A stretch of DNA of 64,000 bases from Actinomycetota bacterium (GTDB lineage: Bacteria > Actinomycetota > Actinomycetes > Propionibacteriales > Propionibacteriaceae), in NCBI GenBank assembly GCA_020161015.1, contig JAIUOT010000063.1, forward strand, positions 1 to 64,000, read 5' to 3'. Each line of letters opens with the position of its first letter. Position 1 is the first letter of the stretch. Shown here piece by piece: positions 33,550-44,841 of the stretch. Position numbers and translations under genes: made by a program. The notes under the pieces are model-generated. The model saw only the letters and a list, made by a program, of their open reading frames with translations, ran no database searches and had not been told where the DNA came from.

Positions 33550-34188
33550 ATGAGCGCCACCCAGGAGGCTCTGGACGGCCTCGTCACGATCCTGACCGCG
33601 GCGTCCGGGACGGCCGGGCTCCAGCTCGCCCGGCCGGGCCGGCCGCACGACGGCCCCCGTCCCGCCGTCCTCGTCACGCCGCTCTCGCTGGACCGCGTCG
33701 GGCGGTCCCGCCGCGCGGGCGCCCTGCTCGACCTCGAGTTGCGGGTGGCCGTCGAGACGTCCGGAGACGACGTCCTCGGGCTCACCGAGGCGCTCCTGCT
33801 GGCCGCGGAGTCGGTGACGCACACCCGGCTCGAGTCCCTGCCCCAGGACCGCCCCGGCTTCGGGTTCCTGATCGGGCTGCCGGTCAGCGTCGCCGTCCCC
33901 GAGCCGACAGCGCCGCCGGTGGAGCAGGTGGTCGTCGACCTCCAGCCGCTGGTCGCGCTCACCGGCACCGTCGTCGACCCGGACGGCGCCGCCGTCCCCG
34001 GCGCGGAGGTGAGCTCCGGGCTCACCCGGCAGCGGGTCACGACCGACGCGGCCGGCGCGTTCAGCCTGCCCGGGTTGTCGCGTCCCACCACGCTCACCGT
34101 TTCCCGCGGGGCCCGCCGGGCCACCGTCGAGGTGCCCGCGTCACCCACCGGGCTCCGTCTCGTCCTACCCAACCACGAAGGGGGTTGA
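33550..34188 (+). CDS. CIS tail-terminator-like protein (Pvc16/DUF4255-like) with carboxypeptidase-regulatory-like domain
   Basis: 212 residues. Residues 1-130 have the alpha/beta layout of phage tail-terminator-like DUF4255 proteins (LVTPLSLDRVG, LLDLELRVAVETSGDDVLGLTEALLLAAES). Residues about 137-207 are a carboxypeptidase-regulatory-like beta sandwich (LTGTVVDPDGAAVPGAEV, TTDAAGAFSLPGL). This fusion occurs in actinobacterial contractile injection loci. In eCIS particles the family caps the distal end of sheath and tube (Afp16/Pvc16). It is the first gene of the operon, 3 bp ahead of the sheath gene. The assignment leans on context as well as on similarity. Confidence 0.65.
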   Translation: MSATQEALDGLVTILTAASGTAGLQLARPGRPHDGPRPAVLVTPLSLDRVGRSRRAGALLDLELRVAVETSGDDVLGLTEALLLAAESVTHTRLESLPQDRPGFGFLIGLPVSVAVPEPTAPPVEQVVVDLQPLVALTGTVVDPDGAAVPGAEVSSGLTRQRVTTDAAGAFSLPGLSRPTTLTVSRGARRATVEVPASPTGLRLVLPNHEGG

Positions 34189-34191
34189 CCC

Positions 34192-35415
34192 ATGCCGGAC
34201 TACCGCGCGCCAGGGGTGTACGTCGAAGAGGTGCCGGGCGGTACCAGACCGTTCGGGAGAGTCGGGACCAGCAGCCTGGGGGTGGTCGGGGTCGCGCCCG
34301 GCAAGGACGCCCCCAAGGACGTCGTGGTGCCGATCGACAACTGGACCCAGTTCGTCAGGACGTTCGTCGGCGACGCCACGGAGGGCACACCGCTGAGCAC
34401 GGCGGTGTACGGGTTCTTCTCCAACGGCGGCACCCGGGCCTACGTCGTCAACGTCGGGACGGGCGGCAGCCTCACGGGTACCGCCAAGCGCCCGACCGGG
34501 CTCACCCTGCTGGAGGCCGTGGACGACGTCGCGATCGTGGCCGCCCCCGGCTACACCGACCCGGCGTCCTACGACGCGCTGATCACCCACTGCGAGCACG
34601 AGCTCCGCCAGGACCGGGTGGCGATCCTCGACACCGTCGAGCAGGTGGACGACGTCAACCAGCTCACCGAGGTGGGGACGGTGACCGCCCCGGCGGCCTC
34701 GGGCGGCGGGGACGCGGCGTCCCCCGCACCGGCCGGGCGCGGGCTGCGTCCGCCGATCTCGCCGGGGGGGTACGCGGCGGCCTACTTCCCGTGGCTGATC
34801 GTGAACGACCCGGTCTCGGGCAAGCAGGTCACCGCACCGCCGTCGGGGCACCTCGCCGGCGTGTGGGCCCGCACGGACGCCACCCGGGGCGTCCACAAGG
34901 CGCCGGCCAACACCCCGATCGCGGGGGCGCTGGGGATCGTTCGTCCGGTGTCGAAGGGCGAGCAGGAGGTGCTCAACCCCGCCGGCATCAACTGCATCCG
35001 GTTCTTCCCCGGCGAGGGCCTCCTGGTCTGGGGCGGTCGGACGCTCGCCGCCGAGTCGAGCGAGTTCCGCTACATCAACGTGCGGCGGCTCACGAACATG
35101 ATCAAGGAGACCGTGCTGAAGAGCACGCGCTGGGCCGTGTTCGAGCCCAACCACCACCCGCTGTGGGCGGCGCTGCGCAGGGACGTCACCGCGTTCCTCA
35201 CCAACGTGTGGCGCGACGGGGCCCTGGTCGGGGAGACACCGCAGCAGGCGTTCTTCGTCAAGTGCGACGCGGAGACCAACCCGCCCGAGGTCCGTGACGC
35301 CGGCCGGGTGGTCACCCTCATCGGGATCGCGCCGGTGAAGCCGGCCGAGTTCGTGGTGTTCCAGTTGAGCCAGTCGGCCGACCTGGCCGCCGTCCAGTCG
35401 ACGGGAGTGAGATGA
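34192..35415 (+). CDS. contractile tail sheath protein
   Basis: 407 residues with an AAGGGGG ribosome-binding site. The N-terminus YRAPGVYVEEVPGGTRPFGRVGTSS is a textbook sheath start, and the C-terminal block YINVRRLTNMIKETVLKSTR, VFEPNHHPLWAALRRDVTAFL and FFVKCDAETNPPEV is the conserved polymerisation domain of phage and eCIS sheaths. A flexible, Gly/Ala/Pro-rich insertion (about residues 165-190) probably marks the variable surface domain. Sheath subunits store energy and contract to push the inner tube outward. This is the only sheath gene in the locus, whereas many eCIS carry two or three. It overlaps the tube gene by 4 bp. Confidence 0.96.
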   Translation: MPDYRAPGVYVEEVPGGTRPFGRVGTSSLGVVGVAPGKDAPKDVVVPIDNWTQFVRTFVGDATEGTPLSTAVYGFFSNGGTRAYVVNVGTGGSLTGTAKRPTGLTLLEAVDDVAIVAAPGYTDPASYDALITHCEHELRQDRVAILDTVEQVDDVNQLTEVGTVTAPAASGGGDAASPAPAGRGLRPPISPGGYAAAYFPWLIVNDPVSGKQVTAPPSGHLAGVWARTDATRGVHKAPANTPIAGALGIVRPVSKGEQEVLNPAGINCIRFFPGEGLLVWGGRTLAAESSEFRYINVRRLTNMIKETVLKSTRWAVFEPNHHPLWAALRRDVTAFLTNVWRDGALVGETPQQAFFVKCDAETNPPEVRDAGRVVTLIGIAPVKPAEFVVFQLSQSADLAAVQSTGVR

Positions 35416-43249: not shown

Positions 43250-44061
43250 GCGTCCTCACCCTCACCCTCACCGCCACCGAGGTCCGCGCCACCCGAGGGA
43301 CGGCGAGCACCGTCACCGCCTCGGTCACCAACTCCGCGGCCGTGCCCGCGCGGGTCGTCCTCGGCGCCTATCCCCCGCTCGCCGGCACGGTGGCGGCCAC
43401 CGGACCGGCCGCGACGGGCGCAGCCGGGTGGACGAGCGTCGAGCGCCCGCTGCGCGAACTGGCAGGCGGCGCCACCGAGCAGTACACGGTGACGATCACA
43501 CCGCCCGCCGACGCCGCCGCCGGCGACCACGTGGTGCGCCTGATCGCCTACGACGCCGACCGGCCGCCCGAGGAGTACAGCGACCAGGCCCAGCAGGTGC
43601 GGGTCACGCTGGCCCCGGCACCGGCGCCCGCCACGGGCATCCCGTGGTGGGTGTATGCGGTGGCAGCGGTGCTGGTTGTCGCCGTCGGGGTGGTGGCGTT
43701 CCTGCTGCTGCGCCCCGCCCCCGTCCCCCCTCCGGAGCCGACGCCGTCGCCCACCCCGTCCAACCCCTGTCCCGAGCCGTTCGTCCCCCGGCTGGCGCGT
43801 CCCGGCGACCTGACCTGCGTGATGCCGGCCAGCGCGAAGGAGGCCCAGTGGGACAACCGGTCGGACGTGCAGCGCAACCGGGTGATCCCCGGCACGACCG
43901 AGTGCCAGATCCCCTACGTGCCGCGCCTGGCCTTCCCCGACGACCTCGTCTGCGTGTGGGAGGACACCGCCAACCGCACCCACGTCGAGAACCAGCCCGG
44001 CTACACCGAGCACATGTTCAACGACTCCGAGTACCCCGACACCTTCACCGAGAGGCGATGA
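43246..44061 (+). CDS. single-pass membrane protein of the injection locus, paralogue 1
   Basis: 271 residues. Residues 1-125 are a beta-sandwich domain with no signal peptide (LTATEVRATRGTASTVTASV, EQYTVTITPPADAAAGDHVV, YDADRPPEEYSDQAQQVRV), like COG1470/CARDB modules. A Pro/Ala linker leads to one transmembrane helix (about 131-153, WWVYAVAAVLVVAVGVVAFL). A Pro-rich stalk follows, then a Cys-bearing region with two copies of a PxVPRLAxPxDLxCV-type motif (NPCPEPFVPRLARPGDLTCV first). Without a signal peptide the beta domain is probably cytosolic and the Cys region outside. It overlaps the tail-I gene by 4 bp, so it belongs to the machine's operon. Confidence 0.75.
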   Translation: MSVLTLTLTATEVRATRGTASTVTASVTNSAAVPARVVLGAYPPLAGTVAATGPAATGAAGWTSVERPLRELAGGATEQYTVTITPPADAAAGDHVVRLIAYDADRPPEEYSDQAQQVRVTLAPAPAPATGIPWWVYAVAAVLVVAVGVVAFLLLRPAPVPPPEPTPSPTPSNPCPEPFVPRLARPGDLTCVMPASAKEAQWDNRSDVQRNRVIPGTTECQIPYVPRLAFPDDLVCVWEDTANRTHVENQPGYTEHMFNDSEYPDTFTERR

Positions 44062-44064
44062 CCG

Positions 44065-44841
44065 ATGAGCGCCATCACCCTGGCCCTGACCAGCACGACG
44101 CTGACCGCGGGCAGCGGCCCGCTCACCGTGACCGCCGCGGTGACGAACTCCGCGACGGTCCCCGCGCGGATCGTGCTCGGCGCCTTCGCCCCGGCCTCCG
44201 GACCCGACGCGAAGGCGTGGGCGCAGATCGCCGAGCCGCTGCGGGTGATCGCCCCGGGCACCACCGAGCAGTACACGGTGACGCTCACCCCGCCCCCGGG
44301 GACGGCGGCCGGCCAGTACACGGTGCGGTTCATCGCCTACGACGCCGACCGGCCGCCGGAGGAGTACAGCGACCAGGCGCAGCACCTCGAGGTGGTCGTG
44401 CCGGCCGCACCGGCCGCGGCAGCGCCGTCGGGGCTGCCCTGGTGGGTGTGGGTGGCCGCGGCTGCGCTGGTCGTCGTGGTCGGCGTCGTGGCGTGGTTCC
44501 TGCTGCGCCCGGGCCCGACGCCCGCCGAGCCCTCCCCTTCGCCCACGCCGACCGCGTCCCCGACCCCGACGAACCCGTGCCCGGCACCCTACGTGCCGCG
44601 GCTGGCCCGGCCGGGCGACAACACCTGCGTCACCGTGCTCAGCGCGGCCGAGGCGAAGGCCGACAACGACCCGGGGCTCCAGAAGGCACGCAAGGACCCG
44701 ACCGGCCCGTACGGCCCGGAGACGTGCGTGCAGGGCTACGTGTGGCGCGAGGCGTTCGAGGGGGACACCACCTGCGTGCCCGGCTCCACGCGCACCCGCA
44801 GCTACTGGGAGAACCAGGGCCATCCGGAGGGGACGCCCTAG
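44065..44841 (+). CDS. single-pass membrane protein of the injection locus, paralogue 2
   Basis: 258 residues, clearly a tandem duplicate of the upstream gene. It shares TATxTNSAxVPAR-like TVTAAVTNSATVPARIVLGAF, IAYDADRPPEEYSDQAQ, the WWVWVAAAALVVVVGVVAWFL membrane helix (about 129-151) and the NPCPAPYVPRLARPGDNTCV motif. The second Cys motif differs, reading VQGYVWREAFEGDTTCV, a CxxGYVWREA...D..CV pattern seen in other actinobacterial proteins. The gap to the first copy is 3 bp. The conserved part (membrane helix plus Cys motif) suggests a shared membrane attachment role. Function unknown. Confidence 0.75.
   Translation: MSAITLALTSTTLTAGSGPLTVTAAVTNSATVPARIVLGAFAPASGPDAKAWAQIAEPLRVIAPGTTEQYTVTLTPPPGTAAGQYTVRFIAYDADRPPEEYSDQAQHLEVVVPAAPAAAAPSGLPWWVWVAAAALVVVVGVVAWFLLRPGPTPAEPSPSPTPTASPTPTNPCPAPYVPRLARPGDNTCVTVLSAAEAKADNDPGLQKARKDPTGPYGPETCVQGYVWREAFEGDTTCVPGSTRTRSYWENQGHPEGTP

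What the first reader, a model, noticed from the sequence alone, without database searches (positions are those of the whole stretch)
33550..44841. Compact contractile injection system (CIS/eCIS-like) lacking ATPase, tape measure and fibre genes
Seen: one sheath, one tube, LysM hub, VgrG-like spike, tip-like, gp25, J and tail-I-like genes in a run joined by 3-8-bp gaps or overlaps. Not seen: AAA+ ATPase (Afp15-like), a long tape measure (Afp14-like), fibre (Afp13-like), capsid, terminase or integrase. Known: most eCIS keep the ATPase and tape measure. Inference: either these parts are encoded elsewhere, or this is a reduced lineage, possibly a cytoplasmic rather than released particle as described for Streptomyces.
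Basis: partly seen in the sequence, partly recalled or inferred. Interest (0 to 1): 0.85.

Follow-up and report, generated by a model that had tools for sequence, protein, structure and literature searches.

The report
Membrane-linked bacterial injection machine without ATPase
The window holds an intact phage-tail-like injection machine of a little-described kind that lacks the usual ATPase, tape measure and fibres but comes with its own set of membrane proteins, so it may well work attached to the membrane of the cell that makes it.

Summary
The operon runs to 46123 and ends in four membrane-protein genes: two single-pass proteins with an N-terminal Ig-like domain (12 of 14 scanned relatives carry a PASTA tail), small single-pass TMx, and polytopic TMy. 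It is not a one-off reduction. 38 sheaths of this type plus L076 form one clade (SH-aLRT 95) over five phyla. None of 33 loci shows the eCIS ATPase. In 26 of 32 genomes it was not found at all; in 6 it lies on other contigs, 11 of 12 hits with another sheath. TMy tracks the lineage: 30 of 32 genomes against 1 of 18 controls, and that one holds a lineage locus too. Best reading: an ATPase-free CIS coupled to the producer's own membrane, functionally like CisA-coupled Streptomyces CIS but with unrelated membrane parts. Coupling, firing direction and cargo are inferred, not shown. Missing tape measure and fibre alone is already known from Streptomyces. Verdict: new variant of a known kind.

The parts
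33550..34188 (+). Terminator-like protein (Pvc16 position), C-terminal carboxypeptidase-regulatory (Ig-like) domain
   Evidence: PF13620 8e-10; terminator role from position only, PF14065 not hit
34192..35415 (+). Sheath (single copy)
   Evidence: PF17482, PF04984, phrog_23; only sheath match in genome
35412..35924 (+). Tube (single copy)
   Evidence: PF06841 1e-31; only match in genome
35878..36948 (+). Pro-rich low-complexity protein in the tube-hub slot (Cis6 position)
   Evidence: No Pfam hit; a frame in this slot in the 33 lineage loci: one open frame of 292-679 aa in 31, run on into the hub frame in L046, in two frames in L057; ends alike by eye
36950..37690 (+). Afp7/Cis7-type hub-tube protein
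   Evidence: PF19266 8e-16
37687..39243 (+). VgrG-type hub/spike (Afp8)
   Evidence: PF04717, NF033848 below cut-off
39240..39572 (+). Spike-tip-like protein with several Cys
   Evidence: relatives in 28 of 28 named lineage loci; no meaningful family hit
39569..39997 (+). gp25 baseplate wedge (Afp9)
   Evidence: PF04965 3e-21
39994..42570 (+). Baseplate J (Afp11) with ~370-aa C-terminal Asp-box extension
   Evidence: TIGR02243 7e-69; PDB 9gtp best stretch is residues 111-483; Asp-box-like motifs in 28 of 29 lineage J proteins over 800 aa
42563..43249 (+). Tail-I-like wedge (Afp12)
   Evidence: TIGR02242 1e-5 and PF09684 0.0085, both below cut-off
43246..44061 (+). Ig-like (NEW3) - TM - Cys-containing single-pass membrane protein
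   Evidence: PF10633; one TM; AF2 model with PapD/MSP-like N-terminal domain
44065..44841 (+). Second Ig-like (NEW3) - TM - Cys-containing protein, 56% identical to the first
   Evidence: PF10633; alignment A3
44895..45356 (+). TMx: small single-pass protein
   Evidence: one hydropathy TM; relatives in lineage loci
45356..46123 (+). TMy: polytopic membrane protein, lineage hallmark
   Evidence: alignment A2, 30 of 32 lineage genomes, AF2 pLDDT 86.8; ATG start at 45356 chosen by relatives

Best explanation
It is a complete contractile injection system of a distinct, ATPase-free lineage. The tail (terminator, one sheath, one tube, hub, VgrG spike, tip, gp25, J, tail-I) assembles in the cytoplasm. 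The baseplate is then held at the producer's own cytoplasmic membrane by a dedicated membrane module. In that module two Ig-like single-pass proteins face the cytosol with a PapD/MSP-like domain and reach into the cell wall with a Pro-rich, Cys-rich or PASTA tail; TMx is a further bitopic protein; TMy is the polytopic core. Contact or envelope stress relayed through the wall-facing tails triggers the baseplate, and the spike is driven through or into the membrane from inside. Without a Pvc15-type loader, cargo is either absent or attached to spike or tube parts. Shown here: gene content, sheath clade, lack of the eCIS ATPase at the locus and in most genomes, co-occurrence of TMy, one transmembrane helix in each NEW3-TM protein. 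Inferred: orientation in the membrane, docking, direction, trigger, lack of loaded cargo.
For: One clade for 38 lineage sheaths plus L076 (SH-aLRT 95, quick tree). None of 33 loci has an eCIS ATPase hit (E<=1e-3, fetched stretches only); 26 of 32 lineage genomes show none at E<=1e-30. The 12 ATPase hits in the other 6 are all on contigs other than the lineage sheath's, 11 of 12 with another sheath. TMy: 30 of 32 lineage genomes, in 26 of the 30 on the sheath's contig, the 4 others having short or broken locus contigs; 1 of 18 control CIS genomes, and that one carries a lineage locus around its TMy. In the family sample TMy is in 13 of 197 genomes and lineage-type J in 12, all 12 with TMy; none of 13 other sheath-bearing genomes has TMy. 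PASTA domain over Pfam's cut-off in 12 of 14 NEW3-TM relatives scanned; PASTA domains are extracytoplasmic in the proteins known to me (recalled). Cytosolic part models as a PapD/MSP-like fold. The operon position is that of CisA, which Streptomyces CIS needs for contraction (PMC12237407, passages). dN/dS 0.19-0.60 in 11 comparisons of 8 of the genes.
Against: No localisation or interaction data. Charges flanking the helix are not decisive: of 14 NEW3-TM proteins 8 have more K/R on the N side, 2 are even and 4 have more on the C side, both window proteins among the 4. The two window proteins have no PASTA hit, their nearest relatives (L144, L145) were not scanned and have tails like the window's, and both Myxococcus proteins scanned have none. 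The CisA-position gene of a Streptomyces locus shows no sequence relation, so the analogy is by position and build only. CisA itself was not found in purified particles (PMC12237407). TMy has no significant family, sequence or fold match, so its role is open.
Confidence: 0.6

Rival explanations
1. A released eCIS whose membrane proteins serve lysis and release (holin/spanin-like) or export; the particle acts on other cells.
For: Same core as eCIS; TMy is a small polytopic protein, as holins can be; the J extension with Asp-box motifs could bind a foreign target in place of fibres.
Against: No unassigned family is shared by 8 or more of the 33 loci, so no fibre is evident (low-complexity genes would escape this test). 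The single-pass protein carries PASTA tails in most relatives scanned and a conserved N-terminal Ig-like domain, unusual for a lysis factor. TMy gave no match in 50,697 phage records and no confirmed relative in IMG/VR.
Confidence: 0.2
2. TMy (or TMx) is the effector or the immunity protein: the machine delivers, or is countered by, a membrane protein, as with tape-measure-related CIS effectors of Streptomyces.
For: Sle1-type CIS effectors are membrane-associated and tape-measure-related (PMC13277306, abstract); no unassigned family is shared by 8 or more loci.
Against: Effectors usually vary between loci (general knowledge), whereas TMy is conserved in four phyla of the sheath clade and on a Deinococcus plasmid. 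In several loci TMy is on the strand opposite to the tail genes, which fits a separate partner as well.
Confidence: 0.12
3. A cryptic or degenerate eCIS that lost ATPase, tape measure and fibre and no longer works.
For: Fewer genes than typical eCIS.
Against: Much the same gene set in 33 loci; open frames in the window genes; dN/dS 0.19-0.60 in 11 comparisons.
Confidence: 0.03
4. Remnant of a prophage tail or an R-type tailocin.
For: Shared tail fold; 2,482 phage records match the sheath, the best-listed at about 24-28% identity; 79 IMG/VR loci hold sheath relatives at up to 51% identity, not examined further.
Against: Sheath and J are nearest to CIS structures 8bky and 9gtp; no head, packaging or integration gene among the neighbours scanned (not every neighbour was scanned); the sheath joins a CIS clade, though no phage sheath was in that tree.
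Confidence: 0.03

Closest known systems
Streptomyces cytoplasmic CIS (type IId, SCO4242-4260, CisA)
   Same: Single sheath gene, no tape measure, no fibre, bitopic membrane protein encoded just after the baseplate genes (PMC12237407, section 6 and passages); nearest solved sheath and J.
   Different: IId keeps the AAA+ ATPase (PMC10020575 passages) and a second tube, Cis1b; the CisA-position protein of S. clavuligerus is not related to NEW3-TM; sheaths fall in a separate clade; no PASTA, TMx or TMy in what I saw.
eCIS of the Afp/PVC/MAC/AlgoCIS kind
   Same: Afp8 and Afp11 core, gp25, hub, terminator position.
   Different: No ATPase, no second tube, no extra sheaths, no fibre seen; membrane module present.
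Thylakoid-anchored CIS of Anabaena
   Same: CIS coupled to a membrane of the producer (PMC8894136, passages).
   Different: Anchoring there is by a Cis12 extension and a Cis13 transmembrane domain, not by NEW3-PASTA and TMy proteins.
Type VI secretion system (i-iii)
   Same: Membrane-coupled contraction with wall-contacting parts is the proposed analogy (T6SS details recalled).
   Different: Sheath is one eCIS-type protein; TMy matches no PDB chain by profile. ClpV and TssJLM were not searched for as such.

Membership tests
eCIS | Afp8 (VgrG) and Afp11 (J) homologues together (98.7% of loci in PMC8213781, passage) | tested here: met
eCIS | AAA+ ATPase in the locus ('invariably', PMC10020575 passage) | tested here: not met
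   family sample, where only 5 candidates per genome were scored
eCIS | Pvc16_N terminator (PF14065) | tested here: inconclusive
   no PF14065 hit in 3 terminator-position proteins scanned; position and C-terminal domain fit
eCIS | tail fibres / release to the outside | tested here: inconclusive
   no unassigned family in 8 or more of 33 loci; release not testable
CIS type IId (Streptomyces) | sheath within the IId clade | tested here: not met
   lineage forms its own clade apart from the Streptomyces sheaths L113, L115, L122; IId label for these recalled from the Streptomyces papers
CIS type IId (Streptomyces) | CisA homologue | tested here: not met
   no similarity of NEW3-TM to the CisA-position protein of S. 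clavuligerus; identity of that gene as cisA is inferred; S. coelicolor CisA itself not compared
CIS type IId (Streptomyces) | second tube gene (Cis1b) | tested here: not met
   one PF06841 match in the genome; one tube in each of 33 loci
T6SS i-iii | T6SS-type two-protein sheath | tested here: not met
   sheath hits PF04984/PF17482 and CIS sheaths in PDB
T6SS i-iii | ClpV ATPase and TssJLM complex | not tested
   only TMy was compared with PDB chains by profile, no match
Contractile phage / tailocin | head, packaging, integration genes or a phage sheath lineage | tested here: not met
   none among neighbours scanned; phage sheaths distant; TMy not in phages or IMG/VR; no phage sheath in the tree
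Thylakoid CIS | Cis12 extension and Cis13 transmembrane fibre | not tested
   no fibre gene seen; the tail-I homologue is short (228 aa)

The most novel reading that the evidence does not exclude
A further way of coupling a contractile tail to the producer's own envelope, besides the T6SS membrane complex, CisA and thylakoid anchoring: a PASTA-tipped Ig-like tether plus a polytopic TMy core hold an ATPase-free CIS at the membrane of both monoderm and diderm bacteria, so that it fires outward from a living cell or punctures its own membrane on a cell-wall signal.
Probability: 0.35. Interest if true: 0.9.

Novelty: new variant of a known kind. Interest (0 to 1): 0.72.

Why it matters
One published account calls the ATPase an invariable mark of eCIS regions (PMC10020575, passage), and a large survey asked for at least ten core genes per operon (PMC8213781, passage), so a lineage of about nine tail genes without ATPase may be under-counted (inference). 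It gives a natural test of what the ATPase does: Pvc15 loads effectors (PMC11495950, abstract and passages), so an ATPase-free lineage should carry no loaded cargo or load it another way. The membrane module gives concrete genes for the open question of how intracellular CIS meet the membrane, and it occurs in monoderm and diderm bacteria alike.

Tried and rejected
Tape measure: I first read the low-complexity protein at 35878-36948 as a tape measure because of its slot. Of 19 non-lineage loci looked at, 12 also have a long gene of 392-1042 aa there, ending in an ERERRG-like motif, and 5 Streptomyces-type loci have no gap. The slot is that of Cis6, and the Streptomyces CIS has uniform length without a tape measure. 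I keep the ruler idea only as a weak possibility.

L037 (G182) is a row of alignment A1 but is a lone sheath at a contig start with no tube beside it; I left it out of the lineage counts. L032 duplicates L054 (same genome) and was left out of the 33 loci. L061, L065 and L066 are short contigs, used in the tree and the genome searches only; L038 and L039, also cut by contig ends, were used in the tree only.

TMy against PDB folds: best Foldseek E 0.2, not used. eCIS_core (PF13699) in the own genome: no hit, but the 14 control genomes were silent as well, so it says little. Fisher values ignore relatedness. In one search dS is limited by the high G+C, so the ratios are likely too high. In some searches only 4 and 5 first-look candidates per genome were scored, and at most 36, so absences there are a little softer than they look; the own genome was scored in full (25 of 25).

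Not settled: whether this lineage is one of the published clades (Chen et al. 2019 was not seen; its results are known to me only through papers that cite it). No paper held both 'contractile injection system' and 'PASTA domain'. Searches showed no description of an ATPase-free CIS lineage in what I saw (listings, and passages of the papers cited); one search returned unrelated ATPase papers. This is one open-access library only.
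Full report
What is there. The window (74% G+C) is bases 1-64000 of a 113 kb contig in a 3.67 Mb genome. A genome of the same family (G168) has a contig of the same length as a named Microlunatus speluncae record (L054), so the family is taken to be Propionibacteriaceae (inference). From 33550 to 46123 fourteen genes lie on the plus strand in close succession. Profile searches confirm sheath, tube, Afp7-type hub, VgrG, gp25 and J, with weaker support for tail-I. The terminator is assigned by position and its C-terminal domain only; the tip by conservation only. 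Neighbours scanned are a D-Ala-D-Ala carboxypeptidase, an M23 peptidase and other cellular genes; none scanned is phage-like.

The last four genes are membrane proteins. 43246-44061 and 44065-44841 each hold an N-terminal NEW3/Ig-like domain, one transmembrane helix and a Pro-rich tail with four Cys; 44895-45356 (TMx) has one transmembrane helix; 45356-46123 (TMy) is polytopic. In relatives the tail of the NEW3-TM protein holds PASTA domains in 12 of 14 proteins scanned. The two without are from Myxococcus, with 28 Cys after the helix. The two window proteins have none either, and the nearest relatives L144 and L145, with tails like the window's, were not scanned. Topology: of 14 proteins 8 have more K/R on the N side of the helix, 2 are even, and 4, both window proteins among them, have more on the C side; 11 of 14 have no Cys before the helix, and all but one have Cys after it. 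The PASTA tail is the stronger sign of N-in, C-out, since such domains face the wall in known proteins (recalled). In the alignment the N-terminal domain is the conserved part and the tail varies. The AlphaFold2 model (mean pLDDT 80.6, tail poor) matches PapD-, ASH- and MSP-type domains in the PDB at E 4e-7 to 1e-4 in the rows listed.

Missing parts. The genome has one sheath match, one tube match and no eCIS-type ATPase: the query from a family eCIS gives three weak hits, by Pfam a TPR-AAA protein, the proteasomal ATPase and FtsH. In the family sample of 197 genomes the ATPase (E<=1e-30) is in 9 genomes, TMy in 13 and a J protein whose match covers the C-terminal extension in 12. All 12 have TMy. 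The thirteenth TMy genome (G096) shows only a partial gene on a 1,962-base stretch without other tail genes. Of 13 other sheath-bearing genomes 8 have the ATPase, 5 have neither (G139, G170, G172, G176, G182), and none has TMy. Only G189 has both TMy and the ATPase, and its ATPase lies with two sheath matches on another contig.

Lineage. The tree of 95 sheath rows puts the 38 lineage rows and L076 together with SH-aLRT 95; this was a quick search without bootstrap, several rows have long branches, and no phage sheath was included. The clade covers Actinomycetota, Chloroflexota, Pseudomonadota, Myxococcota and Acidobacteriota. A Deinococcus plasmid and a Paracoccus plasmid carry the same locus with TMy and no eCIS ATPase hit in the stretch read; their public annotation names a PASTA protein after the tail protein (Paracoccus) or one gene further on (Deinococcus). 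Clustering over 33 loci gave sheath 33, tube 33, VgrG 33, J 32, tail-I 30, gp25 30, terminator 27, NEW3-TM 25, hub 24, TMy 20, TMx 14 plus 4, tip 11; no unassigned family is in 8 or more (the next have 7). These are lower bounds, since many loci end at 10 kb or at a contig end and overlapping frames compete: by direct search hub and tip are in 28 of 28 named lineage loci. Low-complexity genes would escape the clustering. ATPase hits in the 33 loci: 0. Of 52 tree rows outside the lineage label (L076 counted there), 20 had one in reach.

Whole genomes. Of 32 lineage genomes, 26 show no eCIS ATPase at E<=1e-30. The other 6 have 12 hits, all on contigs other than the one with the lineage sheath; 11 of 12 share their contig with another sheath, the exception being G220:C76. 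TMy by profile is in 30 of 32, in 26 of these on the contig of the lineage sheath, the other 4 having locus contigs of 3.5 to 16 kb. The two misses are a Chloroflexota MAG whose stretch ends after gp25 and L076, whose locus does hold a TMy by hmmsearch (6e-16). Of 18 control CIS genomes 1 has TMy, Actinopolymorpha pittospori, and there TMy closes a lineage locus with all tail genes. In a sample of 396 Actinomycetota genomes TMy is in 3, the window's included, so the lineage is rare.

Other traits. The best stretch of the J protein against the Streptomyces J structure 9gtp is residues 111-483; behind it lie about 370 residues. Asp-box-like motifs are in this part in 28 of 29 lineage J proteins over 800 aa, 1.7 per protein against 0.014 in shuffles (3 J proteins of the lineage are shorter or split and were not counted). 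A beta-propeller is inferred; Pfam gave no hit for residues 500-858. A low-complexity protein lies between tube and hub: one frame of 292-679 aa in 31 of 33 loci, run on into the hub frame in L046, two frames in L057; its ends look alike by eye, and it is not Pro-rich in L067. Twelve of 19 non-lineage loci have a comparable gene.

Mechanism. The ATPase in PVC loads effectors (PMC11495950, abstract and passages) and in Streptomyces is needed for the death phenotype but not for particle formation (PMC10020575, passages). A lineage without it should not depend on that step. The membrane module sits where CisA sits in Streptomyces and where fibres sit in eCIS (PMC12237407, passages); CisA is needed there for contraction. 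In some lineage members a NEW3-TM gene lies upstream of the terminator instead (L033, L034, L035). I propose coupling of baseplate and membrane by the NEW3-TM tethers and TMy, with wall-facing PASTA or Cys-rich tails as sensor or anchor. Nothing here shows docking, direction or trigger.

Known or new. Tape measure and fibre loss is known for Streptomyces. Cytoplasmic and thylakoid modes are known (PMC12998442, PMC8894136, passages). An ATPase-free CIS lineage with PASTA-tipped membrane proteins was not found in the searches made. Whether it hides in the trees of Chen 2019 could not be checked. I file it as a new variant of a known kind: a CIS, not an eCIS in the sense that requires the ATPase.

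Noticed in passing
L074, L075, L077, L079-L082, L091, L096, L108: Myxococcota, Planctomycetota and related CIS loci with two sheaths also show no eCIS ATPase hit within the fetched stretch; they are a separate sheath clade.
   Followed up: no
L084, L085, L089, L090, L092, L101-L103, L106, L110, L111, L119: Standard CIS loci also carry a long low-complexity gene between tube and hub, ending in an ERERRG-like motif; it looks like an overlooked CIS component.
   Followed up: partly
L050 (6620-9181) and 6 other lineage loci: A gene of about 853 aa beside the locus is shared by 7 of 33 lineage loci, possibly a regulator; L032 has a LuxR-regulator-like gene with a Walker motif at 15084-17969.
   Followed up: no
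window 43246-44841: The tails of the two NEW3-TM proteins hold repeated Cys motifs of the form CPxPxVPRLAxPxDxxCV with no Pfam match.
   Followed up: no
L225 (Deinococcus plasmid p96k), L226 (Paracoccus plasmid): The lineage locus lies on plasmids in two phyla, which suggests a route for its spread.
   Followed up: partly
L037 (G182:C71:350-1603): A lone lineage-like sheath at a contig start with no tail genes after it.
   Followed up: partly
IMG/VR loci L146-L224: 79 contigs classed as viral hold sheath relatives at up to 51% identity; some may be cellular CIS loci.
   Followed up: no
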